A program made the translations under genes and the position numbers. This document shows, piece by piece, positions 1 to 25,400 of a stretch of DNA of 64,000 nt (its first letter is position 1; the number at the start of each line of letters is the position of its first letter). The notes below the pieces were generated by a model. It made no database searches. It was not told where the DNA came from and saw nothing but the letters and a program-made list of their open reading frames with translations. The DNA comes from Burkholderia sp. USMB20 (GTDB taxonomy: Bacteria > Pseudomonadota > Gammaproteobacteria > Burkholderiales > Burkholderiaceae), in assembly GCF_000949135.2 (NCBI RefSeq), contig NZ_JTAN02000021.1, forward strand, positions 930,001 to 994,000, read 5' to 3'.

Positions 1-640
1 GCGCTCGAGCCGCGGCGACAGCAGCGCCGCGAGCGAGCCCGAGTCCCACACCTGTTGTGCGCGCAGCCCGACCGTGCCGAGCCGGTTCGTGTGCCGGCTG
101 TCCGGATCGGGCGGCACGTCGAGACTCACCGCCCCGGCCCGGAAGAAGTCGGTCGGGTTGTAGCCGATCGCCGCGCCGAGCCGCTCGTTCACGCGCCCCG
201 CGTCGACGACGAACGCGGGCGACGCGCGCCAGCTCGCATACGCTTCCTTCACGAGCGTCACGTCGCGCGACGACGTGCGCGACGTGCCGAGCGGATCGAA
301 GCGGTCGAAGCGCATCGAGAAATGCGCGGCGAACGACGGCGTCAGCCACTGGCCGTATTCGAACTCGATCGACAGCTGGTTGCGGCCGGCCTCGCCGCCG
401 TCGCGATAGCGGCTCGCGCGCAGCGCGTCCTGCACGTTCAGCTTCCACGGCTTCGCGGTGTCGGCGGGCGTCGCGGCCGGCTGGTCGGCCAGCGCGAGCG
501 CCGCGGCGTCGGCCGCGTCGACGCCGGCCGTGCCATCCGCCGCACCCGCTCCACCCGCCCCACCCGCATCCGCTGCACGCACGAGCGCAGGCAGCAGCAC
601 GAACGCGAGCGCGGCGATCCGGCCTCGGCGCCGCGCCGTC
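1..640 (-). CDS. Outer-membrane beta-barrel-like protein, N-terminal part (runs off window)
   Basis: The ATG at 640 overlaps the stop of the upstream LolA-like gene (ATGA), and the frame stays open to the window edge, giving 213 residues. The start MTARRRGR followed by a hydrophobic stretch and VRAADAG is a signal peptide. An Ala/Gly linker follows. From about residue 65 the sequence alternates polar and hydrophobic residues with many aromatics (for example LSIEFEYGQWL, AHFSMRFDRF, KEAYASWRA), as in outer-membrane barrels of the alginate-export or DUF1302 kind. Being last in the train behind a LolA-like protein and a LolCDE-like ABC pair, it may be the outer-membrane partner of a lipid or lipopeptide export route. 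The family is a guess because the C-terminus is missing. Confidence 0.7.
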
Positions 641-1418
641 ATTGCGCCTGGAAGCGGGACAGGTAGTCGCGCTGCAGCCATGCATCGGGAATGTCGCGCC
701 ACGCGTAGTCCGAGAAACGCATGACCGTGACCCAGTTGCTGTCGAGCCCGTCGACGATGACGGTCTCGGTCGGCCGCTCGACGCCCAGTTGCATCGTGTA
801 GCGGCGATAGAACGCGGTCTTCAGCAGCCGGTCGCTTTCCGAATAGAAGCGTGCCTTCAGCGGCCGGTTGTTCGCCGCGTCGATCCAGATCTCGATGCGG
901 CGATACGTGAGCCCGTCGCCGTGGCCGGCAAGCGCGAGCCGGTACGCGCGACGGGTCTGCCGATCGCCGTCGACGATGTCCTCGACGCCCTTCAGCGCGG
1001 CCGTATAGTCGTGCGCGAGATTGACCGTCACGACGTCGCCGTTCGCGGCCTGGCCGAGCAGCCGCTGGTCCGGCGAGATCCGCACGCTGGCCTGGTTCGC
1101 CGGATCGTAGAACCACAGGTCGTTGCCGTTCTTCAGCATCAGCTTGCCCGTGTCGCGCGCCGGCGCGACGAAGCGCACCAGCGTGCGGAACGCACCGCCG
1201 GGCGCGTCGGGCTTCGAATAGATCGACAGCGTATTGCCGTCGACCTGCTTGCCGGACCGGTACTCGACGAGCGTCGCGGTCAGCACGAACGATTTCTCCG
1301 GTGTGCGGATCGCGTCGCTCGCCGCGAGCACCTTCTGCGGATCGGGCGCCGGCTGCGCACGCGCGACGCCGGCCAGGAACGAAAGACTCAGACAGCATGA
1401 AACGAACAGGCGACGCAC
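639..1418 (-). CDS. LolA-like outer membrane lipoprotein-sorting family protein
   Basis: This is a 259-residue exported protein with a signal peptide ending near VARA|QPAP. The mature part is rich in beta strands and has features of the outer-membrane lipoprotein-sorting family (COG2834-type LolA/LolB fold), including LWFYDPANQASVRIS, RIEIWIDAANNRPLKARFY and a C-terminal DYAWRDIPDAWLQRDYL stretch. Proteins of this fold carry acyl chains in a hydrophobic cavity across the periplasm. It sits 51 bases after the ABC permease gene and overlaps the barrel gene by 4 bases, so the three are probably translated together. By inference it hands a lipid, or an acylated product of the upstream synthase, from the inner-membrane ABC unit to the outer membrane. 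Confidence 0.75.
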   Translation of the reverse strand: MRRLFVSCCLSLSFLAGVARAQPAPDPQKVLAASDAIRTPEKSFVLTATLVEYRSGKQVDGNTLSIYSKPDAPGGAFRTLVRFVAPARDTGKLMLKNGNDLWFYDPANQASVRISPDQRLLGQAANGDVVTVNLAHDYTAALKGVEDIVDGDRQTRRAYRLALAGHGDGLTYRRIEIWIDAANNRPLKARFYSESDRLLKTAFYRRYTMQLGVERPTETVIVDGLDSNWVTVMRFSDYAWRDIPDAWLQRDYLSRFQAQ

Positions 1419-1469
1419 GGGCGCTCTCCCGAAAGTGAAGTGAACGAAAAACGCGGCAATCGGGCGACC

Positions 1470-2876
1470 TCACACGTGCCGCAGCGCATCGACGATCGAC
1501 AGCCGCGCCGCATGCCGCGACGGCAGCCACGCGGACAGCCCGGCCACGCACGCTAGCCCGGCGAACGTGACGGCGATGGTTCGCCACTCGCCCCACACGC
1601 GCACCGTCAGCGCGACGGCGTCGATCCGCGCGGGCGGCGTCCAGGCCAGCCCGCTGCGATTGACGATCGCGGCAATGGCGAGCGCGACCAGCACGCCGAG
1701 CGACGCGCCGGCCACGCCGAGCAGCGCGCCCTCGCAGACGAACAGCGCCTGGATGCCGCCGCGCCGCATGCCCATCGCGCGCAGCGTGCCGATCTCGACG
1801 GTGCGCTCGATGATCGCGGTGCTCATCGTGTTGCTGATCACGAACAGCACGATCGCGCTGATCAGCACGAACACGAAACCGAAGATCACCGAGAACATCC
1901 GGTTGGTCTGGTCGTAGAACGGGTTCAGCGTCGCGAAATCGACGACGTCGAGCGCCTGCCCGTCGAAGCCGCCGTGCAGCAGCTGTTCGATGCGCGCGCG
2001 CGCCGCCGGCAGCTCGGCCGTGCGCGCGAGCTGGATCTCGATCGCGGTCGCGCGCGGCGCGGCGCCGCCGTAGACGAGCCGCTGCGCCTGCGGCAGGTGC
2101 ACCGCGAGATACACGTCGTCGAGTTCCTTCACGCCCTGCTGGTCCGCCTTCACGACCGAGAAGGCGGCGACGTTCGGCGCGCCGCCCGCGCTCGCGGTCA
2201 GCACTTCGACATGGGCGCGCGTCGGCGGCCGGCCGCGTGCCGGCCTCGGCCTGTGCGAGCGCGAGCACGTCGGGCGCGCGGTCGCGGCCGGCCGTCGGCG
2301 CGGCGGCTCGGCCGGGCCGGCGGCGCATCGCGCAATCCGGCACGCCAGCGGGCCGCACACGTGCAGCACGCCGCGCGACGCCGAGGCCGACGATCGCGCG
2401 TCGCCGGGGGTGCTGCCGCGCAACGCGAATGTGCGCAGCTGCAGCGGGAACCCGTAGGCGTTCCATTGCTGCATCCGGTACTGGTCGTCCGGAATCGCAC
2501 CGAAGCCCATCACGGTGCGCGACACGCCGGCCGCGAAGTTGCCGGCGATCCCGCCGAACTGCAGCGTCGGCGTGACGACCTGCAGCAGCGGCGCGAGCTG
2601 CGGGTCGTGCCGCAACCGTTCGATCAGCGCCGGGTAGCCGCGAATCCCGTACGCGGCCGGGTCGCCCGTGCCGTACAGGAAATAGCCCTGCCGCTGGATC
2701 TGCAGGTGGCCGCTGCGCTGCACGAAGTCGGTCTGCAGGCCGAGCGTGATGTCGCGGCTGAAGCCGCCGAACAACAGGATTGCGCTGACGCCGACGATCA
2801 TCGCGAGCAGCGTGGTGAGCGAGCGCCGGCGGTTGCGCTGCAGGTTGCGCAGCGCGAGCATCAGCGTATGGGTCAT
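1470..2876 (-). CDS. ABC transporter permease, FtsX/MacB/LolC-like
   Basis: The start is the ATG at 2876, which overlaps the stop of the ATPase gene (ATGA) and gives 468 residues. One N-terminal membrane segment (about residues 20-42, after RNRRRSLTTL) precedes a large periplasmic domain. Three C-terminal membrane segments follow, with the FtsX-type stretch ERTVEIGTLRAMGMRR. This 1+3 layout is that of MacB, LolC and LolE, which extract lipids or peptides from the inner membrane instead of pumping from the cytosol. Within the periplasmic domain, about 2230-2405, the frame reads as Arg/Pro/Ala-rich sequence (PPRRRPAATARP) while the neighbouring frame gives natural-looking sequence (AIVGLGVAR, APDVLALAQAEAGTRP). 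Compensating indels or sequence errors are likely there. Confidence 0.8.
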   Translation of the reverse strand: MTHTLMLALRNLQRNRRRSLTTLLAMIVGVSAILLFGGFSRDITLGLQTDFVQRSGHLQIQRQGYFLYGTGDPAAYGIRGYPALIERLRHDPQLAPLLQVVTPTLQFGGIAGNFAAGVSRTVMGFGAIPDDQYRMQQWNAYGFPLQLRTFALRGSTPGDARSSASASRGVLHVCGPLACRIARCAAGPAEPPRRRPAATARPTCSRSHRPRPARGRPPTRAHVEVLTASAGGAPNVAAFSVVKADQQGVKELDDVYLAVHLPQAQRLVYGGAAPRATAIEIQLARTAELPAARARIEQLLHGGFDGQALDVVDFATLNPFYDQTNRMFSVIFGFVFVLISAIVLFVISNTMSTAIIERTVEIGTLRAMGMRRGGIQALFVCEGALLGVAGASLGVLVALAIAAIVNRSGLAWTPPARIDAVALTVRVWGEWRTIAVTFAGLACVAGLSAWLPSRHAARLSIVDALRHV

Positions 2877-3589
2877 CGGCACACCTCCTGCGTCGCCGTG
2901 TCGTCGCCGGCCCGTTCGTGGCCGACGATGCGGCCGTCGAGAATCCGGATCACGGCGTCGGCCACCTTCACCACCTGCGGATCGTGCGACGACACGATGA
3001 ACGACACGTCGCGCTCGCGCTGGATCGCGCGCATCAACGCGATGATCGCGTGCCCGGTCGCGCTGTCGAGGTTCGCGGTGGGTTCGTCCGCGAGGACCAT
3101 CGCGGGCTCGGCCGCGAGCGCACGCGCGATCGCGACGCGCTGGCGCTGGCCGCCCGACAGCTGGCTCGGCCGGTGCCGCGCCTTGTCGGCCAGGCCGACC
3201 GCGTCGAGCAGGTCGCGCACCCGCGCCGCGCGCCGCGCCGGTGCCCAGCCCGCCATCAGCAGCGGATACTCGACGTTCTCGTACGCGGACAGGACCGGCA
3301 GCAGGTTGAAGGTCTGGAACACGTGGCCGACATGACGCGCGCGGAAATCCGACAGCGCATCGTCCGACAGCGACGCCGTGTCGTGACCGGCGATCGTCAC
3401 GCGCCCGCTGTCGGGGCGGTCGATGCAGCCGATCAGGTTCAGCAGCGTCGTCTTGCCGCTGCCCGACGGGCCGCTCAGCACGGTGAAGCGGCCCGCGTCG
3501 AGCGTCGCCGACACGTCGGCGAGCCCGGTCACGCGCACGCTGTCGAGCAGGTAGGTCTTCGACAGGTGTTCGACATGCACGAGGCTCAC
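2873..3589 (-). CDS. ABC transporter ATP-binding protein, LolD/MacB type
   Basis: This is a 238-residue ATPase. Walker A is SGPSGSGKTT, the signature is LSGGQRQR, Walker B with the following D-loop is VLADEPTANLDS, and the switch His is in SSHDP. The start chosen is the GTG at 3589, which overlaps the monooxygenase stop (GTGA) and has GGAGG 6 bases upstream. Its length and motifs match LolD/MacB-type ATPases that pair with FtsX-domain permeases, and the next gene encodes such a permease. By inference it powers extraction of a lipid-like or peptide product from the inner membrane. Confidence 0.85.
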   Translation of the reverse strand: MSLVHVEHLSKTYLLDSVRVTGLADVSATLDAGRFTVLSGPSGSGKTTLLNLIGCIDRPDSGRVTIAGHDTASLSDDALSDFRARHVGHVFQTFNLLPVLSAYENVEYPLLMAGWAPARRAARVRDLLDAVGLADKARHRPSQLSGGQRQRVAIARALAAEPAMVLADEPTANLDSATGHAIIALMRAIQRERDVSFIVSSHDPQVVKVADAVIRILDGRIVGHERAGDDTATQEVCR

Positions 3590-4971
3590 GACGCACCTCC
3601 CGCGCGCACCGCGTGCGCCGGCGCCGCCTTCGATGCCACCGCGCTCGCACCGCCGGGCAAGGCCGGCAACCCGCGTATCAGCCGTCGCAGCTGCAGCCGA
3701 TACGCGAAATGCTCGACCTCGATCACGTGCCGCGGCGTGCGATGGAACGCGATGCCGCCGCTCCAGTCCGAGCGGCCGCGCCGAATCAGCCGGTCGATGC
3801 GCGCGGCCTTGCGCGGCGCCGCGTCGCGCGCATGCAGGTAGCGGGCGAGCAGCTGCGCCTGGTAGTCCATCAACGGCCAGTTGCCGGTCGAAGTCTGGAA
3901 CAGCCCGATGAAGAACAGGTCGCGATGCTGCGCGTCGAACAGGTTCAGGTACAGCGACGGCTGCCGCTTGCGCCATTGCAGGTGCGCCTGGTCGATGAAC
4001 GGGAAGCTCGGCTGGTAGCCCGTCGCGTACACGATCACGTCGATCGCCTCCTCGCTGCCGTCGACGAACACGACGCGATCGCCCTTCAGTTCGCGCACGT
4101 CCGGCCGCGCGTCGAGGTCGCCGTGTCCGAGGTGATAGAACAGCGTCGAATTGATGATGAAATGCGATTCGAACAGCTTGTGGTCCGGCTTGCGCAGCCC
4201 GTAGTGTTCGGGTTGCCCGGCCGTCGTCAGGCGCAGCAGCCGTTCGCCGAAATAGCGCCGCGCCCACAGCGGCATGCGCAGCCGCAGCGGCCATTCCGCC
4301 CACTCGTCCGCCGGCATCCCGAACAGGAATTTCGGCCAGTAGTAGTAACCGCGGCGCGTGCTGTGGAAGACCGCGCGCGCACGATGCGACGCCTCGACCG
4401 CGATGTCGCAGCCGGAATTGCCGGCGCCGACCACGAGCACGCGCTTGCCGTCGAAGATCTCCGGCGTGCGGTACTGCGACGAATGCAGCTGCAGCCCGTC
4501 GAACCGCCCCGGATAGTCGGGCAGTTGCGGATGCGACAGGTGGCCGTTGCAGACGATCACGCCGCGATAGGTCCGCACCTCGCCGCGATCCAGTTCCACG
4601 CGCCACTGCGTGCCGCCCTGCACCGGTGCGATCTCGAGCACCGAGCGGCCGAACTCGATCCGGTCGTACACGCCGAAGCGCCGCGCGTACGCGCGCAGAT
4701 ACGCGAGTGCCTGGTCGCCGCGTGCATAGGTCGGATAGTCGTCGGGAATCGGAAAGTCGGTGTACTCGGAAAACCGCTTCGAGCTGATCATGTGGATCGA
4801 GCGATACACCGCGCCGCTCGGGCGGCCGTAGTACCAGTTGCCGCCGACGTCGTCCTCGCGCTCGATCACGTCGAAGCCGATGCCGGCCGCGAGCAGGTTC
4901 TTCGCGGCGGTGATGCCCGCCGCGCCCGCGCCGATGATGCAGTACCGCGCGCCGTCGTTGCGCTCCGTCAT
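3586..4971 (-). CDS. Flavin-containing monooxygenase (FMO-like, FAD/NADPH)
   Basis: The ATG at 4971 follows AGGAGG and gives 461 residues. The FAD-binding motif IIGAGAAG is at the N-terminus, the FMO fingerprint FDGLQLHSSQY lies near residue 160-170, and a second dinucleotide motif VVGAGNSG binds NADPH. These are the hallmarks of class B flavin monooxygenases, which oxygenate N, S or carbonyl carbon (Baeyer-Villiger) using FAD, NADPH and O2. It is 20 bases downstream of the P450-KR-DH gene and overlaps the ATPase gene by 4 bases. I infer it is a tailoring enzyme for the acyl chain or polyketide made by the cluster. The substrate cannot be read from the sequence. Confidence 0.85.
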   Translation of the reverse strand: MTERNDGARYCIIGAGAAGITAAKNLLAAGIGFDVIEREDDVGGNWYYGRPSGAVYRSIHMISSKRFSEYTDFPIPDDYPTYARGDQALAYLRAYARRFGVYDRIEFGRSVLEIAPVQGGTQWRVELDRGEVRTYRGVIVCNGHLSHPQLPDYPGRFDGLQLHSSQYRTPEIFDGKRVLVVGAGNSGCDIAVEASHRARAVFHSTRRGYYYWPKFLFGMPADEWAEWPLRLRMPLWARRYFGERLLRLTTAGQPEHYGLRKPDHKLFESHFIINSTLFYHLGHGDLDARPDVRELKGDRVVFVDGSEEAIDVIVYATGYQPSFPFIDQAHLQWRKRQPSLYLNLFDAQHRDLFFIGLFQTSTGNWPLMDYQAQLLARYLHARDAAPRKAARIDRLIRRGRSDWSGGIAFHRTPRHVIEVEHFAYRLQLRRLIRGLPALPGGASAVASKAAPAHAVRAGGAS

Positions 4972-4991
4972 GGTGAACCTCCTCTTCCCGT

Positions 4992-9142
<4,151 letters not shown>

Positions 9143-9146
<4 letters not shown>

Positions 9147-12100: not shown

Positions 12101-15100
12101 GACAGCAGCCCGCGCGTCGCCGCCGCCCACTACCGCGAGCACCGGCAGCCCTTCGGCCTGCGCACGCCGCACCGTCGTGACGGCGAACAGCACGATGCCC
12201 TCCGCGAGCGGCAGCCCGAACGCGGGCCGCACCTCTTCCGCCGAGTTGCCGTTGATGCCGCCGACGATCGCCATGTCGAGTTCGCCGCTGCACAGGAAAC
12301 GCTCGGCCGCCTCGAATGCCGCGAGCGTCGACGCGTGGCCCGCATCGACCGTCATGTTCATTCCGTGCAGGTCGTGATAGTTCGCGACGCGCGCCGGGAT
12401 CACGTTCGGCATCATTCCCGGAAACGAATTCTCGGTCGTCGGCGCGACGAGTTGCTTCGTCGCCTCGCGCAAGCCGTCCAGCACGCGTTCGGTCGCCGCG
12501 CGTTGGTCCGGCCGCGTCGCGTCGAGCACCGCGGCCGCGATGTCGTCGAGATAGCAGCGGCTCGCATAGAGCGCCGCATTGCGCGTGGGTCCCATGTGCC
12601 CCATCACGAGTCCGATCGTGTCCGCATGCGCGTGCCAGAATGTGCCGAGGCGTTCGCGCAGGTCGTGCGCGGCGTCGAGCGCCATCAGCTGGCAGCGATC
12701 GAGCGCGCGCAGCACCGCCGGAGGCATCTTCACGCGCGCGAAGCTCGGCAGCGGGTAGCCGGTTCCGAAGCTCGCGTCGGGCGCACGGCCTTCGCCGCGC
12801 AGCCACGCGGCGACCTGGGCGTCGCCGTCGAGGCCCGGAAACTTCGCGGACCAGCCGACGATCGCGAGCGGTTCGCGCGCGAACCGCCCGCTCGCCTCGC
12901 CGGCAGGCAGATCCGCGCGGTATTCCGACACGATCAGGTGACCGTTCGTGCCGCCGAAGCCGAACCCGGACACCGCCGCGACGCGTGCCGATTCACGCCG
13001 GACCGGCCACGATACCGGCGCCACCGGAATCCGCAGGTTCGTGCCGGCGATGTCGAACTCAGGCGGCGGCTCGCTGAAGCGGTGCTGCGGCGGGATCACC
13101 TGATGCCGCAACCCGAGCAGCACCTGGATCACCGACACGACGCCGGCCGCCCACCCCGTATGCCCGACCAGCGACTTGTTCGACGTCACCTGCACCGGGC
13201 GGTCGCGCCGGATCGCGTCGCGCAGGCTCTGGAATTCCGCGAGATCGCCGGCCGGCGTACCGGTTGCATGCGCAACCACCCAGTCGACGTCGGCCGGCAC
13301 CGTCGCGGTGCGCGCGTACGCGCGGTCGATCGCGATGCGCTGGCCGGCCGAATTCGGCGCGTAGATCGCCTTGCCCTTGCCGTCGGACGACGAGCCGAAC
13401 GATTTCAGCACGCCGAGGATGCGGTCGCCGTCCGCGCGCGCCCGCGCGACGCGCTTCAGGATCACGACGCCCGCGCCGTCCGCGAACAGCACGCCGTCGC
13501 AGTCGCGATCGAGCGGCCGCACCTCGCCGCTGCGCGACAGCCCGTGCAGCTTCGAGAACAGGACCGAGCCGCGCGGCGCGAGCGCGAAGGCGCCGCCGCA
13601 CGCGACCACGTCCTGCTTGCCGAGCAGCAGCGCCTTGATCCCGAGATCGATCGAATACAGCGACGACGAACACGCGGTGTCGACCATCATGCATTGCGCG
13701 TCGTCCGGCAGCACGCCCTGCATCGCGTTCAGGCCGACCCGGTGCGGGAAGAACGACGCGAGATCGCCGGCGCCGCGCGCATAACGCGCGCTCAGCACCG
13801 CATCGATCGCGGCCACGCGCCGCTCGCGCTCGGCCGCGTCCGCGCCCGCCTCGATCAGCACCGCGTTCAGGCGTTCGCGCGCGGCGGCCAGCACCATCCC
13901 CTCCTCGAGATGCTGGCTGCCGTCCGCCGTGTAGCCGACGAGGAACGCCACGCGATCGGCGTCACGCAGCGTCACGCCGTCGAGCGACTGGCACAGCGCG
14001 TGACGCAGCCACAGCGTCGTCAGCTCGTGCGGCGCGGTACCCGCGTCGAGTTCGGCGCGCACCGTCGGGCACGGCTCGAGCTGCTCGATGAAGACCGAGC
14101 GCGACTGATAGCTCTTGTCCTCGGCCGACGTGTCGGGCGAATAGAACGAGCGGTAATCCCAGCGATCCGGCGGCACGTTGCCGAACAGTTCGGGGCCGTC
14201 GAGCAGTGCGCGCCAGAACGCATCGGGGTCGCTCGCGCCGGGCAACGCGAGACCCATGCCGACCACGGCGATGTCGTCGCTGTCCGGCGCGTCGTCCGGC
14301 GGCGCGGCGGGACCATCGGCCCGCTGCGCGTTCACGGAGACGGGCGGCACCGCGGCCGGCGCCGCCTCGCCCGCGCCCTCGGCACGCGCCGCGCCCGCCC
14401 ATTCCGCGCGTGGCGACAACCCTTCGCTGCACAGCGACAGCCCGCCGTCCGCGACGACCACCTGCCCGGTGATCCAGCGCGCCGCATCCGATGCGAGAAA
14501 CACCACGAGATCGGCGAGGTCCTCCGCGCGTGCGAGCCGCTTCAGCGGCGTCGCGGCGATGCTCGAGCGCTTCGTGTTCTCCGGGTCCGGAAACTGCGCG
14601 GCGACGTCGCCGTCGATCAGCGTCGACGACGCGCCGTTCACGCGAATGTCGCGGCCCGCGTACTCGACCGCGAGATAGCGCGTCAGCGATTCGAGCGCTG
14701 CCTTCGCGGTGCCGACGACCAGGTAGTTCGCCGGCACGAGCGTCGCGCCCACCGACGACACGTTGACGATCGCGCCGCCGCCCGAGCGCGCCATCAGCGA
14801 CGCGGCACGACGCGCGCACCAGAACGCGCCCTTCAGGTTGGTATCGAGCGCGCGATCGAAATGCTCGGCGCCGATCTCGTCGACGCCGAGCAACGCACCG
14901 GACGCCGCATTGTTGACGAGCACGTCGAGCCGGCCGTAGCGCCGTTCGATCTCGTCGAACATCCGGTCGACCTGCGCCTGCTGCGCGACCGACGCACGGA
15001 TCACGTCGACCGTCGCGCCGAGCGCGCGCAGTTCGTCGGCCGTCTGCTTCGACGCGTCGAGCGAGTGGAAGAAATTCAGGATCACGTGCGCGCCCTGCTC

Positions 15101-15187
15101 GGCGAAACGCCTGCAGATCGCCTTGCCCACGTTTTTCGCGCCGCCCGTCACGAGGACGAGCTTGCCGCGCATGCTGGTATTCGACAT
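9143..15187 (-). CDS. Multidomain iterative synthase: FabL-type ER - KS - KS-like/CLF - KR - DH-DH (PUFA-synthase type)
   Basis: This is a 2014-residue protein starting at the ATG at 15187 (MSNTSMRGK), with AGGCAGG upstream. Residues 1-250 are a short-chain reductase closely resembling FabL enoyl-ACP reductase (VTGGAKNVGKAI, LVNNAASGAL, TAKAALESLTRYLAVEY, GQVVVADGG). After an Ala/Pro linker, residues about 325-745 are a ketosynthase with DTACSSS (Cys506), HATGTPAGD and NKSLVGHTGW. Residues about 755-1110 are a second KS-like domain in which the active-site motif reads TVDAGHAST, so Cys is replaced by His, as in chain-length-factor domains. A KR follows (GGARGIT about 1390; Ser/Tyr in NFGSFIG and ETDYASGND). 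Two hot-dog folds close it, with catalytic motifs HVVNGFPTLP and SILLDGLARV intact. No AT or ACP is present; both are supplied by the preceding gene. Confidence 0.85.
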
Positions 15188-15262
15188 GGATCGCCTGCCT
15201 ATCGAGAACTTGTCATTACGGGCAGGCCCCCCCCTGCCGACCAACGTTTCAGCCCACGGCCG

Positions 15263-16867
15263 TCAGGCGGCCGCCTTCCCCTGGTTCTCGTAGACGAAAT
15301 CGACGATCTGCCCCATCGCCTTGAAATCGCCGCTGCGGAAATTGGCCGCCAGCGGCGGCAGCGCGTAGCGCGCGGTGATGCGCTGGATGATCTCGGTCTG
15401 CTTGACCGAATCGATGCCGAGTTCGGCTTCGAGCTCGATCGTTTCGGAGAACACCTCGGCCGGATACTCCATCGCTTGCGCGTAGATATCGACGAGCTCC
15501 GTGAACAGCCGCTCGCGCGGCACGTGGGCGGGCTTCGCCGCCGCGAGCGGCTTGTGAGGCGCCGACGGCGCCGGCACCGCCGTCAGGGTCGGCGCGGCCA
15601 CGGCCACCGCCGACAGGCGCGGCGCGGACGCGACGAGCGGCTCGGCCTGAGGTGCCAATGCGGCGAGCGTCGGTGCCGCGACCGGCGCGGCGCCGGCCGG
15701 CGCCGTGCTCGCCGCATCGAACGCGTGACGCAGCTCGCCCTTGAGCCAGTCGACGATGTGCGGTCCGCGCGCATGCCAGAACGCGTCGAACCCGGAGCCG
15801 GCGTTGCCGATGCGAATATCGTCCTTCATGATGCTGTCCTCCTGGAAATAACGGGTGATGGTCGTGACGACGCTCGATTCCTCGGTCGCATTCGACGGGC
15901 CGCCGAACGTCCTGGCCGTGCCGGGCCCCGCGATGCGCACGACGATGCGCGCCAGCGCGTTGAGCGCGCCGCATTCGACGTAGCGCCCGATGCCGTCCGC
16001 GCACGCGGCGCGAATCGCATCGGCGAACCGCACCGGCAGCACGAAATGCGACGCGAGCCGCGCGCCCGGATCGTCGGCGCCGCTGTAGCGGCGGCCGAGG
16101 ATCGGCGAATACACCGGAATTGCGAGCGGGCCGTGCCGATACGCGGCGAGCCGCGCGGCGAACTGTTCGCGCGCGCCAGCCAGATCGGGGTGATGAAATC
16201 CATACGGAGATCTGAGCGTCTGTGCTGTCACGCCGCGTGCCGCGCATGCCGCGACGAAGCGCTCCAGCGCGTCGCGCGGGCCGGACACGACGGTCTGCGA
16301 CGGATGGTTCTCGACCGCGACGCACACGTTGCGCACCGCGTGCGTGACGGCGCTCGCGCCGATCAGCTCGCGCGTCGCGTCGGCACCCGCGGCGATCGCG
16401 GCCATCATCCCGTCGGCCGGCGCCGCCGCCTGCAACGACGCTATCCGGTCGCAGACGATCCGCGCGCCCTGCTCGATCGAATACATGCCGCCGCACACCA
16501 GCGCCGCGATCTCGCCGAAGCTGTGTCCGATCAGCACGTCGGGCGTCACGCCGCGCTCGCGCAGCACGCCGAACATCCCGACCGACGCGCCGTAAATCCC
16601 GAGCTGCAGCAGATCGGGCGCTTCGTGCAGCCAGACGTCGAGCCCGGCATCGTCACGCCACAGCGCGCCCGTCAGCGGGTGGCCGAGGCGCTCGCTCGCG
16701 ACCGCGTCGAGCAGGTCGAGCGTCAGCCGCACGCTCGAGTGTTCGCGACCCAGCTGCCGCAGCACGCCCGCATAAAATGCGCCCTGTCCCGGGAACAGGA
16801 ACGCGCAGCCGCGCGCTTGCGCGCCGCTCGCGTCCGGCCCGGCGCCGTTCAGCCCGCGTCGTTCCAT
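15263..16867 (-). CDS. Acyltransferase - acyl carrier protein (AT-ACP) fusion
   Basis: This is a 534-residue protein. The ATG at 16867 lies 19 bases inside the end of the TolC-like gene, with GGGAGG upstream. The AT domain has FLFPGQG near residue 24-30 and the nucleophile elbow IGHSFGE (Ser116). The specificity loop reads YGFHHP, which does not clearly predict malonyl over other units. After an Ala/Pro linker (about 370-440) a single ACP follows with LGIDSVKQTEI. Ser487 is the phosphopantetheine site, and the DSVKQ form is typical of PUFA-synthase ACPs. It supplies and carries extender units for the neighbouring synthase. No phosphopantetheinyl transferase or thioesterase is visible in the window, so activation and release must come from elsewhere. 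Confidence 0.85.
   Translation of the reverse strand: MERRGLNGAGPDASGAQARGCAFLFPGQGAFYAGVLRQLGREHSSVRLTLDLLDAVASERLGHPLTGALWRDDAGLDVWLHEAPDLLQLGIYGASVGMFGVLRERGVTPDVLIGHSFGEIAALVCGGMYSIEQGARIVCDRIASLQAAAPADGMMAAIAAGADATRELIGASAVTHAVRNVCVAVENHPSQTVVSGPRDALERFVAACAARGVTAQTLRSPYGFHHPDLAGAREQFAARLAAYRHGPLAIPVYSPILGRRYSGADDPGARLASHFVLPVRFADAIRAACADGIGRYVECGALNALARIVVRIAGPGTARTFGGPSNATEESSVVTTITRYFQEDSIMKDDIRIGNAGSGFDAFWHARGPHIVDWLKGELRHAFDAASTAPAGAAPVAAPTLAALAPQAEPLVASAPRLSAVAVAAPTLTAVPAPSAPHKPLAAAKPAHVPRERLFTELVDIYAQAMEYPAEVFSETIELEAELGIDSVKQTEIIQRITARYALPPLAANFRSGDFKAMGQIVDFVYENQGKAAA
15827..15843 (-). promoter_or_regulatory. Possible internal ribosome-binding site and start for a free ACP
   Basis: Within the AT-ACP frame, AGGAGGA (15837-15843) sits 7 bases before an in-frame ATG at 15829 (MKDDIRIG). 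Starting here would give a separate 188-residue linker-ACP protein ending at 15263. Extra free ACP relative to AT-ACP would make sense, but use of this site is only inferred. Confidence 0.4.
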
Positions 16868-18276
16868 AATCCCAACCTCCCAAGGCTCTCCGCCAGTTTC
16901 AGTCTCGCGATCCGCCACTTCGACACCGCGAGCACGCGCTGCCGACGCGCATCCGCGAGCGCCGACTGCGCGTTCAGCAATTCCGTGAACGTGCCGACGC
17001 CGGCCTTGTAGCGCCCACGTGCGATGTCGAGCGAATGCAGCGCGGTATCGAGCAGATGCCGCGAGTTGTCCAGGTTCGTCGTATCGGTCTGCAGGCTCTG
17101 GTAGCTCTTCCACACGTCGAGCGACACCTTCAGTTCGGTATTGCGCACGTCGGCTTCCTGTGCATCCGCTTGCGCCTTCGCTTGCGCGACCCGGTAGCCC
17201 GACGCGAACCCTTCGAACAGCGGAATCGAAACCTGGATGCCGATCGAGTTGCTGTGACTGCTCTGCAACTGGAGAAACGACGCCTGCTGCTGGTAGGACG
17301 GGTTGTTGCGCGCGACGCTGCCCGTCAGCGAAATCGTCGGCAACGACTGCGCGCGCACCGCACGCACCTCGTCGCGCGCCGCTTCGAGCTTTTCGCGCGC
17401 GGCGATCAGCTTCGGGTGATGGCGCTTCGCTTCGGCGATCAGGTCGGCGACACCGCGCGTGAAGTCGTCGCGATCGGGCGACGGTTCCGCGTCGGCGATG
17501 CGCAGCGGCGTATCGGCGTCGGCGCCCAGCGTCGTCGCGAGCGTGCCGATCGCGCTCTGCAGGTCGCCCTCCGCGCTCACGCGATCGAGCAGCGCCTTGC
17601 GGTAGGTGGTCTGCGCCTGCAATGCGTCGCCGAGCGTGCCGGCGCCGCCGTCGTGCCGCGCGCTCGCCTCGGCGAGGCTCTCCTGCGCCGCGTGCTCGAC
17701 CGCCTGCGCGGCGGCGAGCGCCGCCTGCGCGTCGCGCAGCGCGTAGAACGCCTGCGCCGCATCGTAGAACACGCTCTGCAGCGCATCGTCGTGCGCCGCG
17801 TTGGCCGCGCGCAGCAGCGCGCGCGCACGGTCGAGCGTCGCGCCGCGCTTGCCGAAATCGAACAGCACCCAGCTCAGGTTGAGCATGCCGTAGCGGCTGG
17901 TGCTGCGCTGGTCCTGCGAGTAGCCGCCGCTGTAGTTCGTCGTCAGGTTGTCTCGCTCGATACCCGCCGTCGCATTGAGCGTCGGCCAGTACGCGGCCTT
18001 CGACACGCCGACCTCGGCCGCGGCCGCGCGCGCATCCGACCATGTCCGGCTCAGTTGCGGATGCGAGCAGATCGCCAGCAGGATCGCGTCCTCCAGAGCG
18101 AGCGGCCGCGCGTCGACAGGCTGTGCGCCGCACGCGGTGGCCGACGCCATCGCCCCGGCCGGCGTGGCCGCGACGTCATTGCGCGTGCCGTACACGTCGA
18201 GCAGCTGCGCGCGTGCCGGCGGCGCGGACACCGCGAGCGCGACGACAGCCAGCACGGTAGCGAGGGGACGCTTCAT
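16849..18276 (-). CDS. TolC-family outer membrane efflux protein
   Basis: This is a 475-residue protein with a signal peptide ending near PARA|QLLD. Two internally similar halves rich in Ala/Gln coiled helices (for example AKAQADAQEADVRNTEL) and the strands WVLFDFGKRGATL and VSIPLFEGFASG mark an outer-membrane factor of the TolC/CyaE type, which forms the outer-membrane and periplasmic channel of type I secretion systems. Only 3 bases separate it from the exporter gene upstream, and its end overlaps the AT-ACP gene by 19 bases. With the HlyD and C39-ABC genes it completes a three-part exporter for the double-glycine peptide, and it links that exporter physically to the synthase genes. Confidence 0.9.
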   Translation of the reverse strand: MKRPLATVLAVVALAVSAPPARAQLLDVYGTRNDVAATPAGAMASATACGAQPVDARPLALEDAILLAICSHPQLSRTWSDARAAAAEVGVSKAAYWPTLNATAGIERDNLTTNYSGGYSQDQRSTSRYGMLNLSWVLFDFGKRGATLDRARALLRAANAAHDDALQSVFYDAAQAFYALRDAQAALAAAQAVEHAAQESLAEASARHDGGAGTLGDALQAQTTYRKALLDRVSAEGDLQSAIGTLATTLGADADTPLRIADAEPSPDRDDFTRGVADLIAEAKRHHPKLIAAREKLEAARDEVRAVRAQSLPTISLTGSVARNNPSYQQQASFLQLQSSHSNSIGIQVSIPLFEGFASGYRVAQAKAQADAQEADVRNTELKVSLDVWKSYQSLQTDTTNLDNSRHLLDTALHSLDIARGRYKAGVGTFTELLNAQSALADARRQRVLAVSKWRIARLKLAESLGRLGLWNDAG

Positions 18277-18279
18277 CGC

Positions 18280-20502
18280 TCAGCGCCCCGCGACCGGTTC
18301 CGCCGCGCCGGCGTCGTGTGTCGCCGGCTGCGGCGCGACGGGTGCAGCGGCGGACGTCCTTGCCGCCATCGCCGCGCGCATCGCGGCGGTCGACTGGTCG
18401 AGCACGACCTTGCCGCCCTGCAGCATGATGACGCGCTGCGCGGACGCGATCGTCTCCGGCCGGTGCGCGACGATCAGCCGCGTCATCGCGAGCTGCGTGA
18501 CGGCCGCGTTGACCTGCATCTCGCGCTGGATGTCGAGATGGCTCGTCGCTTCGTCGAGCACCAGAATGCCCGGCCGCTTGTACAGCGCACGCGCGAGCAG
18601 CACGCGCTGCTTCTGCCCGCCGGACAGCACCGTGCCCATGTCGCCGACCAGCGTGTTGTAGCCCATCGGCATCGCGGCGATGTCGTCGTGCACGGCCGCG
18701 ACGCGCGCGCATTCGGCGACCCAGCGCGGGTCCGCGTCCGGATCGAAGAAACTGATGTTGTCCGCGATCGAGCCCGCGAACAGCACGTCGTCCTGCAGCA
18801 CCGTGCCGACCAGCGCGCGCAGCCGCTCGATGCCGAGCCGGCCGACGTCGAGCCCGCCGATCCGCACCGTGCCGCCCGTCGGTTCGTGGATGCCGAGCAG
18901 CACGCCGATCAGCGTCGTCTTGCCGCAACCCGACGGCCCGACGATCGCGACCGACTCGCCCGCCGCGATCGTCGCGCTCACGCCGTCCAGCACGAGCGGC
19001 TCGCCTTCCGCGTAGCGGAACGACAGCGCGTCGATCTCGATGCTCGCGTCGAGCGCGTCGGCCTCTCCCGGCACGTTGCGCAGGCTCGCGTCCGGCTCGC
19101 TTGCCGCGAACACGATGTCGGCCAGCCGCTCGCCCTGGAGCTGCAGCATCCTGACTTCGAAGTACTTGTCGATCAGGCTGCCGACCCGGCTGTCGAACTG
19201 GTTCTTGTACGCGTTGAACGCCATCAGCACGCCGACGGTGAACTGGCCGTCCATCACCATGCGCGCGCCGAGCCAGATGATCAGCACGTTCTCGATGCCG
19301 AACAGCAGGCCGTTGAGCTGCTGGTAGAAGATCTGCAGCTTCTGCACGTGCAGGCTCGCATTGACCTGCTCGACCAGCAGCGTGATCCAGCTCGCGCGGC
19401 GCTCCGTCTGGCGGTTGAACAGCTTGATCGTCTTCACGCCGCGCACCGTTTCGAGGAGATGGCTCTGCTGCTTGGCCGCGTGCACGATCTGGTCCTCGGT
19501 CGCACGCCGCAGCGGGCCGTACCACAGCCACCGGACGAGCGCGTACAGCGCCATCGTCGCCAGCGCGACCAGGCCGAGCACGCGGCTGTACACGAACATC
19601 ATCGCGAGCGTCACGATCGTCATCAGCCCGTCGATCACCGCGCCGAGAAACGACGTGGTCAGCGTCTGCTGGATCGTGTCGATCGAACCGAAGCGCGACA
19701 CGACGTCGCCGAGGTGGCGCCGCTCGTAGTAGCGCACCGGCAGGCTCAGCAGGTGCGTGAACACGTTCGCGCGCCACTGGATGTTCAGCGTGACGCCGAC
19801 GTACATCAGCGCCCACGCGCGAATCGTGCCGGTCGCCTGCTGCATCAGCAGCAACAGGCCGAAACCGAGCGCCAGCACCGTCAGCAGGTCGCGATCGGCG
19901 CTGACGATCACCTCGTCGATCACCCACTGCAGGAAGAACGGCTGCACCAGCATGAAGACTTCGAGCGCGATCGCGAGCGCGAGGATCTGCGCGAGCGAGC
20001 GCGAAAGCCCCGACACCGGGCCGAGCAGCTCGCGCAGCTTCACCGCCGGCCGCGCCGCGCGCGGCGCGAACCCGGCGGCCGGCCACAGTTCGAGCGCGAC
20101 GCCGGTGAAGGCGCGCGACACTTCCGCGAGCGGCACCTTGCGGATGCCGTGCGACGGGTCATGAATCGTCGCGGTCTTGCCGCTCACTTCCTTCAGCACC
20201 ACGAAGTGGTTGAAATTCCAGTGCAGCAGGCACGGCAGGCGAAGCTGGCCGAGCTGCGCCAGGTCGAGCTTCACCGCGCGCGTGCCGAGCGCGAGGCGCT
20301 GCGCGACCTCGATCACGCGCCCGAGCCCCGCGCCCTTCAGCGAAACGGGGAATTGCCCGCGCAGCGTCGCGAGATCCACGTGATGGCCGTGATAGCCGGC
20401 CACCATCGCGAGACACGCGAGCCCGCATTCCGCGGCCTCCGTCTGCAGGATCATCGGCAGCTGGCGGCCGAGGCCGAACGAGAGTCGATCGAGTAGTGCC
20501 AT
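18280..20502 (-). CDS. Peptidase-containing ABC transporter (C39 protease, bacteriocin exporter)
   Basis: This is a 740-residue protein with its start at the ATG at 20502 (MALLDRLSF), 9 bases after GAGG. The N-terminal C39 peptidase has a full catalytic triad: Cys26 in TEAAECGLAC, His99 in WNFNHFVVL and Asp115 in TIHDPSHG. Membrane segments lie in about residues 155-430. The C-terminal ATPase has Walker A GPSGCGKTT, signature LSGGQKQR and Walker B/D-loop ILVLDEATSHLD. Such enzymes cut leaders after a Gly-Gly pair and export the core peptide. A fitting substrate is encoded at the head of this gene train (21944-22138). Intact catalytic residues separate it from the inactive C39-like domains of RTX toxin exporters. 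Confidence 0.93.
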   Translation of the reverse strand: MALLDRLSFGLGRQLPMILQTEAAECGLACLAMVAGYHGHHVDLATLRGQFPVSLKGAGLGRVIEVAQRLALGTRAVKLDLAQLGQLRLPCLLHWNFNHFVVLKEVSGKTATIHDPSHGIRKVPLAEVSRAFTGVALELWPAAGFAPRAARPAVKLRELLGPVSGLSRSLAQILALAIALEVFMLVQPFFLQWVIDEVIVSADRDLLTVLALGFGLLLLMQQATGTIRAWALMYVGVTLNIQWRANVFTHLLSLPVRYYERRHLGDVVSRFGSIDTIQQTLTTSFLGAVIDGLMTIVTLAMMFVYSRVLGLVALATMALYALVRWLWYGPLRRATEDQIVHAAKQQSHLLETVRGVKTIKLFNRQTERRASWITLLVEQVNASLHVQKLQIFYQQLNGLLFGIENVLIIWLGARMVMDGQFTVGVLMAFNAYKNQFDSRVGSLIDKYFEVRMLQLQGERLADIVFAASEPDASLRNVPGEADALDASIEIDALSFRYAEGEPLVLDGVSATIAAGESVAIVGPSGCGKTTLIGVLLGIHEPTGGTVRIGGLDVGRLGIERLRALVGTVLQDDVLFAGSIADNISFFDPDADPRWVAECARVAAVHDDIAAMPMGYNTLVGDMGTVLSGGQKQRVLLARALYKRPGILVLDEATSHLDIQREMQVNAAVTQLAMTRLIVAHRPETIASAQRVIMLQGGKVVLDQSTAAMRAAMAARTSAAAPVAPQPATHDAGAAEPVAGR

Positions 20503-20513
20503 GCGCGACCTCG

Positions 20514-21791
20514 TCAGAGTTTGCCGGTGAGGCTGTAAAGCGGCTCCAGCACCCATTCGTACAGGCGCCTGCGCTCCTGCAGGATGTCTGCCTGCAGCGT
20601 CATGCCCGCCTGCAACGGTTGCTGCGCGCCATACGCGGTGACGTGCTGCGCATCGAGCGCGACGACCACGCGATAGAAGGTCGCATCGCGCCCCTCGCCC
20701 GGCGTCGCCGCCGGGCCGCCGTCGTTCGCGAGTTCGGCCGCCGACAGCGCCGTGCGCGCGATCGACACGACCTCGGCGCGATACTGGCCGAATTTCTGGT
20801 ACGGAAATGCCTGGTAGCGGACCAGCACCGGCTCGCCGACCCGCACGAAACCGATCGCCGTGCTCGGCACGAACAGGTGCGCCTGCCAGCGCGCGCCGCC
20901 CGGCACCACGCTCGCGAGCGGCCGGGATGTATCGACCGACTGGCCGACGTCGGCGATCGCCGCCGTCACGACGCCCGCTTCCGGCGCGGTGACGACGATC
21001 CGGCGCTTCGCCTCGCTTTCGATCAGGTTCTGGTCGACGTCGATCACGTTGCGGTCGATCTGCGCGAGCTGGTTCTGCTGCTTGAGGTCGAGGCCGGCCA
21101 GCTGGTTGTTCGCTTCCGTCAGCGACTGCGCCGTCGACGCACGCTCGCGCAGCAGCCCGTTCAGCTTCGACTGCTGGTCGAGCAGGTCGGCTTCGCGCTG
21201 CTGCGCCTGATCCTTCGAGATGTAGTCCTGGGCCAGCAGGCCGCGATAGCGTTTCGCGCCGTCAGCCGCGATCGACGTGCGCAACCGCTGCGCCGCGAGC
21301 TGATCGTCGATCTGCGCAAGCTCGCCGCCCAGGCTCGCGATCTTCGCGCGCACCGTTGCGCGTTCGTCCTGCTGCAGGCTGCGCGTCTTGTCCATTTCCG
21401 TGAGCAGCGACGCCTTGCGTTGCCGCGCCTGCGCGATCAGCGCGGCCTGCGTCGCGCCTTGCGCCGCGCTCTGCAGGTCGGTGGACACCGTATAGAGCGT
21501 CTGCCCGCGTGCGACGTGCTGCCCTTCCTTCACGTCGCGCTCGACAACGATCCCCGGCTGCAGCGCATAGACCTTCACCAGCCCCGCATCCGGCATCACG
21601 ACGCCGCTGACCGTCGTGCGACGCGTGTAGGTGCCGAACGTGAAGAACAGCAGCACGCACGCGGCCATCGCGACCGCGGCGGCCGCCAGCAGCGTCAGCG
21701 ACACGGGGCGCACCAGCACGATCTCGCCCAGCGCGCCGGCGCGCTGCGCCTGTTGTGCTTCGTGCCGGAAGAGAGAAGTCGGGTTCGTCAA
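20514..21791 (-). CDS. HlyD-family periplasmic adaptor (type I secretion)
   Basis: This is a 425-residue protein with a short cytosolic N-terminus, one membrane segment (about residues 30-52, LTLLAAAAVAMAACVLLFF) and a long coiled coil (about 95-255). The lipoyl/barrel halves are marked by VSGVVMPDAGLVKVYALQPG and RIVVTAPEAGVVTAAIADVGQ. This is the usual membrane-fusion adaptor that joins a C39-type ABC exporter to a TolC channel. It ends 11 bases before the exporter gene and starts 152 bases after the peptide gene, with two stable hairpins in that gap. Confidence 0.92.
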   Translation of the reverse strand: MTNPTSLFRHEAQQAQRAGALGEIVLVRPVSLTLLAAAAVAMAACVLLFFTFGTYTRRTTVSGVVMPDAGLVKVYALQPGIVVERDVKEGQHVARGQTLYTVSTDLQSAAQGATQAALIAQARQRKASLLTEMDKTRSLQQDERATVRAKIASLGGELAQIDDQLAAQRLRTSIAADGAKRYRGLLAQDYISKDQAQQREADLLDQQSKLNGLLRERASTAQSLTEANNQLAGLDLKQQNQLAQIDRNVIDVDQNLIESEAKRRIVVTAPEAGVVTAAIADVGQSVDTSRPLASVVPGGARWQAHLFVPSTAIGFVRVGEPVLVRYQAFPYQKFGQYRAEVVSIARTALSAAELANDGGPAATPGEGRDATFYRVVVALDAQHVTAYGAQQPLQAGMTLQADILQERRRLYEWVLEPLYSLTGKL

Positions 21792-21853
21792 GATACGGGA
21801 TGACAGACAGTCAGTTGGGTTCGACGGGATGCGTTCCGGTTGCCCGGGAAGAT

Positions 21854-21884
21854 CGCCGCGGCACCCCGCTTCGGTGCCGCGGCG
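21854..21884 (-). promoter_or_regulatory. Perfect 12-bp stem-loop between peptide and HlyD genes
   Basis: CGCCGCGGCACC (21854-21865) pairs with GGTGCCGCGGCG (21873-21884) across a 7-base loop. No T-run follows on the minus strand, so it is more likely a leaky terminator or an RNA-stabilising stem than a classic terminator. It lies where peptide operons commonly lower expression of the export genes relative to the peptide. Confidence 0.6.
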
Positions 21885-21897
21885 GTCCGCGATTCAC

Positions 21898-21925
21898 GCG
21901 ATGGCGGCGCAGCGCGCGCCATCGC
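21898..21925 (-). promoter_or_regulatory. Second stem-loop directly after the peptide gene
   Basis: GCGATGGCG (21898-21906) pairs with CGCCATCGC (21917-21925) around a 10-base loop, 18 bases past the peptide stop. With the next hairpin it forms a tandem structure in the 152-base peptide-to-hlyD gap. Confidence 0.5.
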
Positions 21926-21943
21926 ACGGAGATCGCGTCCGGC

Positions 21944-22138
21944 TTACGCGTGCTGACCGCCCAGCAGGCCGAGCAGTGCGTTGCCCGTGCCCACGACAGC
22001 CGTCGTCAGCGCTTCGCCGACGTTGTAGAGCGTCTGGCCGTACAGCTCGACCACGTTGCCCAGCGTGTCGAAAATCGAGCCGCCGCCGTAGTAGCCGCCG
22101 GAAACTTGTGCGATTTCCTGCTGATTCAGTTCTTGCAT
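21944..22138 (-). CDS. Double-glycine-leader peptide (bacteriocin/microcin-like precursor)
   Basis: This is a 64-residue precursor. The ATG at 22138 has GGAG about 10 bases upstream; an in-frame ATG 36 bases further up lacks such a site. The leader MQELNQQEIAQVSGG fits the class II double-glycine pattern (EL..EI..VSGG), so a C39 peptidase should cut after residue 15. The 49-residue core starts YYGGGSIFDTLG, is rich in Gly, Leu, Val and Thr, has no Cys, and ends LLGLLGGQHA. This is like a hydrophobic, unmodified class II microcin or a pore-forming peptide. It heads the train that encodes its exporter. No immunity gene was recognised beside it. Target and activity are unknown. The Tyr-Tyr and Gly-rich start of the core offers possible modification sites for the P450 or FMO, but that is conjecture. 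Confidence 0.8.
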   Translation of the reverse strand: MQELNQQEIAQVSGGYYGGGSIFDTLGNVVELYGQTLYNVGEALTTAVVGTGNALLGLLGGQHA

Positions 22139-22160
22139 TGCGTTTCTCCAGATTGAGAAT

Positions 22161-22179
22161 GCTAGATAACCCATCTAGC
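22161..22179. promoter_or_regulatory. 7-bp inverted repeat upstream of peptide gene
   Basis: GCTAGAT-aaccc-ATCTAGC is a perfect palindrome 23-41 bases before the peptide ATG. It could be an operator or a leader hairpin. Confidence 0.4.
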
Positions 22180-22221
22180 GGGGCATCGAACCACGCCGCG
22201 AATCGCGACGCAGATCAATAC

Positions 22222-25332: not shown

Positions 25333-25400
25333 GCGCCAACCTATCAGCGTCCTCGATGCCCGCACGTTCGCGGCCGGCAAGCCGGCCTGCCTCGCGGCGT

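What the first reader, a model, noticed from the sequence alone, without database searches (positions are those of the whole stretch)
1..22138. One gene train joins a double-glycine peptide exporter to a PUFA-type synthase and a Lol/MacB-like lipid route
Seen: twelve minus-strand genes with short gaps or 3-, 4- and 19-base overlaps run from a GG-leader peptide through HlyD, C39-ABC and TolC to AT-ACP, FabL-KS-KR-DH, P450-KR-DH, FMO, LolD/MacB-like ABC, LolA-like protein and an outer-membrane barrel. Known: C39 exporters mature GG-leader peptides; PUFA-type synthases make acyl chains; Lol/MacB systems handle lipids. Inference: this may make a lipidated or co-exported peptide, a peptide-polyketide hybrid secretion system that I do not recognise as described. 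Two separate products from one operon is the simpler alternative.
Basis: partly seen in the sequence, partly recalled or inferred. Interest (0 to 1): 0.88.

Follow-up and report, generated by a model that had tools for sequence, protein, structure and literature searches.

The report
Lipid-synthase operon with exported peptide
A Burkholderia gene train joins a small exported peptide and its secretion machine to a lipid-making enzyme set, and the peptide was found only in genomes that also carry the lipid genes, which suggests that the two work together without showing that they form one molecule.

Summary
Minus-strand genes 22138-1 form one tight train: double-glycine (GG) peptide, HlyD, C39-ABC, TolC, AT-ACP, SDR-KS-CLF-KR-DH, P450-KR-DH, FMO, one ABC with one FtsX permease, LolA-like protein, and a gene cut by the window edge. 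TolC and AT-ACP overlap by 19 bases, also in 9 of 9 close relatives.

Of 65 genus genomes, 16 carry the synthase and the same 16 carry the peptide family; 0 of 49 others do. The exporter lies upstream (9 genomes), downstream (Paraburkholderia ginsengisoli) or, with a peptide, away from the synthase (7). The reverse fails: four of five related clusters outside the genus set, and 6 of 6 actinomycetes tested, lack the peptide.

No enzyme that would join peptide and acyl chain was recognised, and peptide alleles differ while the synthase stays 96% alike. Best reading: two products, two export routes, coupled function, the peptide depending on the lipid. A covalent hybrid is possible but unsupported. 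No immunity gene shared by all loci was seen.

A conserved 8-bp hairpin sits before the ribosome site of these peptide genes: 20 of 20 exact genome hits, reversed control 0. Product and activity are unknown; linkage and shared ancestry weaken the count.

The parts
22161..22179 (-). inverted repeat GCTAGATGGGTTATCTAGC, an 8-bp hairpin just before the ribosome site of the peptide gene
   Evidence: One match in the window with up to 3 mismatches, 0.01 expected; 20 hits in 14 of 65 genomes, reversed control 0; read before GG-peptide genes; 135 of 136 pair cells kept in 17 sequences, most of them chosen by the pattern
21944..22138 (-). 64-aa precursor, leader MQELNQQEIAQVSGG, glycine-rich hydrophobic core of 49 aa
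   Evidence: family in 16 of 65 genus genomes at E<=1e-14; no Pfam/NCBIfam hit
20514..21791 (-). HlyD-type membrane fusion protein (TTG start)
   Evidence: PF13437 3.6e-18
18280..20502 (-). C39 peptidase-ABC exporter
   Evidence: PF03412 2.3e-34, PF00664, PF00005; Q/C and D motifs present; among PDB relatives the ABC-type bacteriocin transporter 4ry2, 9.3e-95
16849..18276 (-). TolC-family outer-membrane channel
   Evidence: PF02321 1.8e-64
15263..16867 (-). acyltransferase-ACP protein; start overlaps tolC by 19 bases
   Evidence: PF00698 1.8e-30, PF00550 0.002, under cut-off; GHSFG and GIDS; overlap in 9 of 9 relatives
9143..15187 (-). SDR(FabL-like)-KS-CLF-like-KR-DH iterative synthase
   Evidence: DTACSSS 503, DAGHAST 948, HxxxGxxxxP 1721
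4992..9146 (-). P450 - proline/threonine linker - KR - DH-fold protein
   Evidence: PF00067 1.9e-85, PF08659 3e-21; C-terminus PKS DH fold, Foldseek 1e-9
3586..4971 (-). flavin monooxygenase
   Evidence: PF00743 8.1e-65
2873..3589 (-). LolD/MacB-like ABC ATPase
   Evidence: PF00005 9.1e-33
1470..2876 (-). FtsX-type permease (one only)
   Evidence: PF02687 1.3e-16
639..1418 (-). LolA-like periplasmic carrier
   Evidence: PF17131 2.2e-33; PDB 3buu 4.3e-38
1..642 (-). start of a protein cut by the window edge; 404-aa relative in P. ginsengisoli

Best explanation
One operon makes two products that leave the cell by two parallel routes. The AT-ACP, SDR-KS-CLF-KR-DH, P450-KR-DH and FMO proteins build and oxidise a long acyl chain (inferred from domains). 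The single ABC/FtsX transporter, the LolA-like carrier and the last protein pass it through the envelope (inferred). In parallel the C39 exporter cuts the GG leader and exports a 49-residue hydrophobic glycine-rich peptide through HlyD and TolC (inferred from domains and leader). The peptide functionally depends on the lipid product: in the genomes searched it was not found without the synthase, while the synthase occurs without it (the pattern is shown by comparison, the dependence is inferred). The most likely use is in competition or at the cell surface, with the lipid as partner, anchor or self-protection for the peptide (inferred; not shown).
For: Order and overlaps; families. Synthase in 16 of 65 genus genomes, peptide family at E<=1e-14 in the same 16 and 0 of 49 others. 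Family level: peptide in 15 of 398 genomes, all 15 with synthase (a 16th, G028, matches over the leader only); synthase in 17 of 398. Arrangements: exporter upstream in 9, downstream in P. ginsengisoli on the same strand, exporter and peptide away from the synthase in 7. The window and P. ginsengisoli peptides, by plain tblastn at 1e-4, hit 5 of 20 unlinked exporter loci, all five in synthase genomes. 19-base overlap kept in 9 of 9. Between the linked loci and the others, the only shared frames seen were those of, or overlapping, the peptide and hlyD, i.e. no immunity gene common to all (17 loci compared, 8 printed, output cut).
Against: The co-occurrence is not 65 independent cases: on an rpoB tree the synthase label needs 10 changes, but in the cepacia-type genomes the genes are linked, and the 7 unlinked genomes are one or two old lineages in which all sampled members have both (the pair test run there had identical labels by construction, so its 6 of 6 adds nothing). 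The peptide model A5 was built from peptides of synthase genomes, so distant peptides elsewhere could be missed. Exporters of synthase genomes are not one clade. Peptide alleles are 57-97% alike while the KS is 94-96% alike between the window and the six long-allele genomes, so the synthase does not appear to read the core peptide. Short frames conserved within group A at about -700 to -450 were not examined as immunity genes. No transcript or product is known.
Confidence: 0.6

Rival explanations
1. The peptide is acylated by the synthase product: a ribosomal peptide-polyketide hybrid matured and exported by the C39 system.
For: Same train and overlap; where the peptide is, the synthase is; an alpha/beta-hydrolase lipase stands beside all 19 clusters mapped that far, with a weak match to an acyltransferase family (LCAT, E 0.095), and could in principle transfer acyl groups.
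Against: No GNAT, condensation or thioesterase domain in the window's genes or in the extra genes of P. ginsengisoli; the residue after GG varies (Y, H, A, G, N); peptide alleles differ between near-identical synthases; synthases without the peptide exist.
Confidence: 0.12
2. Two unrelated modules share a promoter or travel together by chance; the co-occurrence is shared ancestry.
For: The unlinked case is one or two old lineages; exporters of synthase genomes do not form one clade; exporters of the same subfamily carry other peptides in genomes without synthase.
Against: Three arrangements, including a different genus with the exporter at the other end of the same strand; no peptide without synthase among 398 family genomes; no partial block among the 9 linked genomes.
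Confidence: 0.25
3. Special case of the best explanation: the lipid pathway is the producer's immunity or the peptide's anchor. The lipid is placed in the outer membrane and protects against, or holds, the exported peptide.
For: No immunity gene common to the peptide loci seen; LolA-like and ABC route in the same train; direction of dependence from peptide to synthase.
Against: Activity of the peptide and place of the lipid are unknown; immunity could be encoded elsewhere or differ between groups.
Confidence: 0.2

Closest known systems
Class II microcins (colicin V type) with C39-ABC/HlyD/TolC export (PMC9746304 and PMC10233263 seen in a search listing only; features recalled)
   Same: 15-residue GG leader, glycine-rich core, C39-ABC exporter with HlyD and TolC
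   Different: No immunity gene common to the loci seen, no Pfam MccV match above cut-off (best 14.7 of 27 bits, P. ginsengisoli), tied to a lipid synthase, no known activity
Cdz glycine-zipper bacteriocin of Caulobacter (PMC5380434, passages read)
   Same: Small hydrophobic glycine-rich peptides with a presumed leader, type I export
   Different: Cdz has two peptides with extended GxxxG zippers and CdzI immunity; the window has one peptide without an extended zipper (read by eye); the term 'lipid' did not occur in the paper's main text
PUFA/Pfa-type synthases and their PKS-NRPS hybrids: zeamine, fabclavine, megapolipeptins (PMC13291983, passages read)
   Same: KS-CLF-type iterative acyl synthesis; hybrids of lipid and peptide are known
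   Different: There the peptide is nonribosomal and covalently joined; here it is ribosomal with its own exporter; TIGR02813 PfaA is far below cut-off (311 of 1010 bits)
RiPP-polyketide lipopeptides: goadvionin, lipolanthines (search listing only; enzyme details recalled)
   Same: Ribosomal peptide gene together with acyl-chain synthase genes
   Different: Those have peptide-modifying enzymes and an acyl-joining enzyme (recalled); none was recognised here
Lol/MacB-type ABC systems (recalled)
   Same: ABC ATPase, FtsX-type permease, LolA-like carrier
   Different: One permease, not two, and PF17131 instead of classical LolA; cargo unknown

Membership tests
Class II microcin system | double-glycine leader on a small precursor | tested here: met
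   MQELNQQEIAQVSGG; GG, or GA in P. ginsengisoli
Class II microcin system | C39-ABC, HlyD and TolC exporter | tested here: met
Class II microcin system | adjacent immunity gene | tested here: inconclusive
   only frames of or overlapping peptide and hlyD were seen as shared between linked loci and the others, -3000 to +1300, 17 loci compared, 8 printed and output cut; short frames conserved within group A were not examined
Class II microcin system | match to a microcin family model | tested here: not met
   no hit for the window peptide; P. ginsengisoli peptide MccV 14.7 bits, cut-off 27
Class II microcin system | antibacterial activity | not testable with these tools
   needs experiment
Pfa (PUFA) synthase | KS followed by CLF, with KR and DH | tested here: met
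Pfa (PUFA) synthase | tandem ACPs | tested here: not met
   one ACP stretch, just under its cut-off; none in the KS and P450 proteins
Pfa (PUFA) synthase | PfaA curated cut-off (TIGR02813) | tested here: not met
   311 of 1010 bits
RiPP-polyketide lipopeptide | enzyme that joins acyl chain and peptide | tested here: not met
   no such domain recognised; an unrecognised enzyme or the lipase is not excluded
RiPP-polyketide lipopeptide | covalent acyl-peptide product | not testable with these tools
   needs mass spectrometry
LolCDE/LolA lipoprotein route | LolD-like ATPase, FtsX permease, LolA-like carrier | tested here: met
   PF00005, PF02687, PF17131
LolCDE/LolA lipoprotein route | two different permeases and LolB | tested here: not met
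   one permease gene in the train; the last gene has no Pfam match
Cdz glycine-zipper bacteriocin | two adjacent peptides with extended GxxxG repeats | tested here: not met
   one peptide in the window; no extended zipper (sequence read by eye); some unlinked loci do have two adjacent peptides

The most novel reading that the evidence does not exclude
A two-part lipid-and-peptide system in which an exported microcin-like peptide has no protein immunity gene of its own and relies on a dedicated, oxidised lipid, made by its own synthase and sent to the outer membrane by a Lol-like route, as anchor, partner or self-protection.
Probability: 0.22. Interest if true: 0.88.

Novelty: new variant of a known kind. 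Interest (0 to 1): 0.62.

Why it matters
If peptide and lipid work together, this would be a ribosomal-peptide counterpart of the known PUFA-synthase hybrid lipopeptides, and a case where the partner or immunity of an exported peptide is a lipid. The comparison offers relatives with synthase and no peptide, relatives with different peptide alleles beside near-identical synthases, and a 5' hairpin usable to find further precursor genes, so the idea can be tested directly.

Tried and rejected
Rejected or weakened: (1) terminator between tolC and AT-ACP: terminator-like sites at chance level and a 19-base overlap in 9 of 9 (the stop was tied to tolC by motif in 7 of the 9). (2) ABC transporter genes at 23500-25485 as immunity: no orthologue in the stretches fetched at the other nine group A loci, only weak ABC matches of 31% or less. 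(3) Exporter co-inherited with the synthase: the exporter tree does not show it. (4) Hairpin restricted to synthase genomes: exact hits are, but G017, without synthase, has a one-mismatch copy before a different GG peptide. (5) Lipase as specific to the cluster: related lipases, 66-70% alike, occur on four Burkholderia replicons for which no synthase match was listed (replicons, not whole genomes). (6) Hairpin as an unusually stable fold: five of six folded 66-67 nt stretches are hardly more stable than shuffles (z -0.2 to -1.1), one is (z -3.1). (7) Known RNA family in the window: two tRNAs only. (8) PDB relatives of the peptide: best E 0.015, none credible. (9) Anti-phage defence, five proteins scanned: one partial ABC match only.

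Literature: ten searches (three of them returned no paper) gave no listed title or start of abstract that describes a PUFA-type synthase with a C39-exported ribosomal peptide; passages were read in two papers only. The library lacks most subscription papers.

Limits: the window's own genome is not held; rpoB was missing for G054, so the species tree has 64 genomes; contig ends cut the exporter loci of G040, G026 and one of the two of G044 before the peptide; genomes reached through lack contigs under 3,000 bases; the output was cut; the trees are quick ones; the fold of the gene at 1-642 was not attempted because its full-length relatives came from sources the fold tool does not accept.
Full report
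What is there. Pfam and NCBIfam confirm each family except the peptide and the cut gene at 1-642. The TolC and AT-ACP genes overlap by 19 bases with the likely AT-ACP ribosome site inside tolC; four other junctions overlap by 4 bases (with the ATPase start taken at the GTG at 3589). Terminator-like sites in 14500-24300 number 5, with 5.0 expected. The ABC protein keeps the C39 motifs, and solved bacteriocin exporters are among its PDB relatives.

Where it occurs. In 65 genomes of the window's genus the KS-CLF region (window residues 300-1060) is found in 16. Seven (group B, KS 75-77%; named twins B. singularis, Burkholderia sp. TSV86 and a strain recorded as B. multivorans WS-FJ9) have AT-ACP to the LolA-like and last genes in the same order (a few matches in pieces), plus a phosphopantetheinyl transferase, but no peptide or exporter in the stretch fetched upstream of AT-ACP. 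Outside the genus set the synthase occurs in five related proteobacterial genomes (P. ginsengisoli, P. sejongensis, P. antibiotica, Paraburkholderia sp. LEh10, and one recorded as Burkholderia sp. SRS-W-2-2016), in Methylocapsa aurea, and at about 49-60% identity (best segment) in some thirty actinomycete loci.

Peptide and synthase go together. A model of the peptide family (A5, 13 sequences) finds matches at E<=1e-14 in exactly the 16 synthase genomes and in 0 of 49 others; at E<=1 eleven more genomes ring, ten weakly (best E 0.05-0.74) and G028 at 4.5e-6 over the leader only. Because A5 was built from peptides of synthase genomes, a less circular test matters: plain tblastn with the window and P. 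ginsengisoli peptides at 1e-4 against 20 unlinked exporter loci hits 5, all five in group B genomes; the 12 loci of other kinds (10 from genomes without synthase, 2 second loci of synthase genomes) give none, and 3 group B loci end at contig ends before the peptide. By handle, 1 of 12 further genomes has the peptide: P. ginsengisoli; the four related genomes, Methylocapsa and 6 actinomycetes have none. Of the six proteobacterial ones only P. ginsengisoli has the close exporter, 81%; four others have C39-type exporters of about 30% identity and Methylocapsa none at that threshold.

Three arrangements. In group A the exporter lies between peptide and synthase. In P. ginsengisoli the peptide stands directly before AT-ACP, and HlyD, C39-ABC and TolC stand after the lipase and its foldase at the other end, all on one strand. 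In group B peptide(s) and exporter are on other contigs than the synthase; in the four assemblies of 2-4 contigs this is another large replicon. Extra peptide genes away from the close exporter lie in G026, G037, G040 and G044; the one in G037 stands a few kilobases from a distant C39 exporter.

Caveats on the count. On an rpoB tree of 64 genomes the synthase label needs 10 changes, so it is patchy among cepacia-type species, but there the genes are linked and cannot count as separate evidence. The pair test in that call was fed identical labels and adds nothing. The 7 unlinked genomes make up whole lineages in which every sampled member has both, so they are one or two events. The exporters of synthase genomes do not form a single clade and mix with exporters of genomes without synthase, whose cargo peptides differ. 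So the conserved partner of the synthase is the peptide rather than one exporter lineage.

Independence of the peptide sequence. Group A with the window holds two peptide alleles: 64-65 residues (window, G061, G054, G036) and 80 residues (the six others). The window's KS region is 96% identical to both G061 (same allele, 97%) and G062 (other allele, about 60%). The start of HlyD changes too: residues 1-60 are 62-67% identical in the four long-allele loci that could be read and 97% in G061, but only 77-78% in G054 and G036, which share the short allele; the rest of HlyD is 92-98% in all 7 of 9 loci read. This looks like a peptide cassette under diversification, as in bacteriocins (recalled), and argues against an enzyme of the synthase reading the core peptide.

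No sign of a joining enzyme; immunity open. Neither the window's genes nor the extra genes of P. ginsengisoli (DUF4345, phosphopantetheinyl transferase, lipase, foldase) show a GNAT, condensation or thioesterase domain; the lipase is an alpha/beta hydrolase with a weak LCAT match (E 0.095). In a screen of ORFs from -3000 to +1300 round the peptide in 17 loci, the only frames seen as shared between group A and the others belong to or overlap the peptide and hlyD (eight loci printed, output cut). Short frames at about -700 to -450 are conserved within group A on both strands and were not examined further. The ABC genes at 23500-25485 have no orthologue in the stretches fetched at the other group A loci.

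A hairpin before the peptide genes. The window has GCTAGATGGGTTATCTAGC at 22179-22161, ahead of the ribosome site (one match with up to 3 mismatches, 0.01 expected). The pattern GCYAGATGGGNNATCTRG occurs 20 times in 14 of 65 genomes, all synthase genomes; its reversed control occurs 0 times. All 20 sites stand before GG-peptide genes: 19 by script (one of them a copy of an already listed stretch), and one (L233) read by eye because the script chose a wrong frame. G032 and G039 have a GGA variant. In 17 sequences an 8-bp stem keeps 135 of 136 cells, with C-G to U-A changes in 3 and G-U pairs in 13. Most of these sequences were chosen by the pattern, so the share paired is partly built in; of the five measures, the number of pairs changed on both sides (1; 246 of 500 shuffles reach it) and the number of further pair types (500 of 500) are no better than shuffled. 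The G-U cells lean towards an RNA hairpin over a symmetric binding site, but they sit at the two ends of the stem, so this is weak. G017, without synthase, has a one-mismatch copy before another type of GG peptide, so the element marks this type of peptide gene rather than the synthase.

Judgement. The inference of a functional link is strengthened; the inference of a single hybrid molecule is not supported. The best reading is two products with coupled function in which the peptide depends on the lipid. Whether the lipid anchors, assists or protects is open, and no product, activity or transcript has been seen.

Noticed in passing
window 22161-22179 and 20 genome sites: Conserved 8-bp hairpin before the ribosome site of this type of GG-peptide gene; the window's Rfam scan shows no family there.
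   Followed up: partly
window 22607-23090: DNA shared with the upstream flank of 7 of 9 group A clusters. In G062, with relatives in G024, G045 and G055, a long ORF that looks like a molybdenum hydroxylase large subunit (name recalled) lies there; the window has only a remnant, beside different genes, which hints that the cluster has moved.
   Followed up: partly
L155, L158, L159, L036-L051: A secreted-lipase gene stands downstream of the synthase in all 19 clusters mapped that far (16 genus genomes, P. ginsengisoli, G353, G414); its foldase was seen in 11 of the 19, several stretches ending before it. Beyond the window's edge.
   Followed up: partly
L087-L118 except L104 and L117: Actinomycetes (Streptomyces, Nocardia, Kitasatospora and others) carry relatives of the synthase, many with AT-ACP, P450 and KR genes beside it; product unknown to me.
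   Followed up: no
L085 (Methylocapsa aurea): Synthase and FMO followed by DUF4345 with no Lol-type genes detected in between.
   Followed up: no
L161, L162, L163, L164, L167: Extra precursor genes of the same peptide family, away from the close exporter, in G026, G037, G040 and G044; four of these five have the hairpin, L161 does not.
   Followed up: partly
L054, L057, L232, L233: A second peptide type (MQELNMQEV..VSGAG, glycine-rich; L233 seen only at its start) with the same leader and the hairpin (one mismatch in L057), next to related exporters in L054 and L057.
   Followed up: partly
window 7590-7670 and 5960-6023: Simple (TP)n and (NPA)n repeats in linkers of the P450-KR-DH protein, likely to vary in length.
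   Followed up: no
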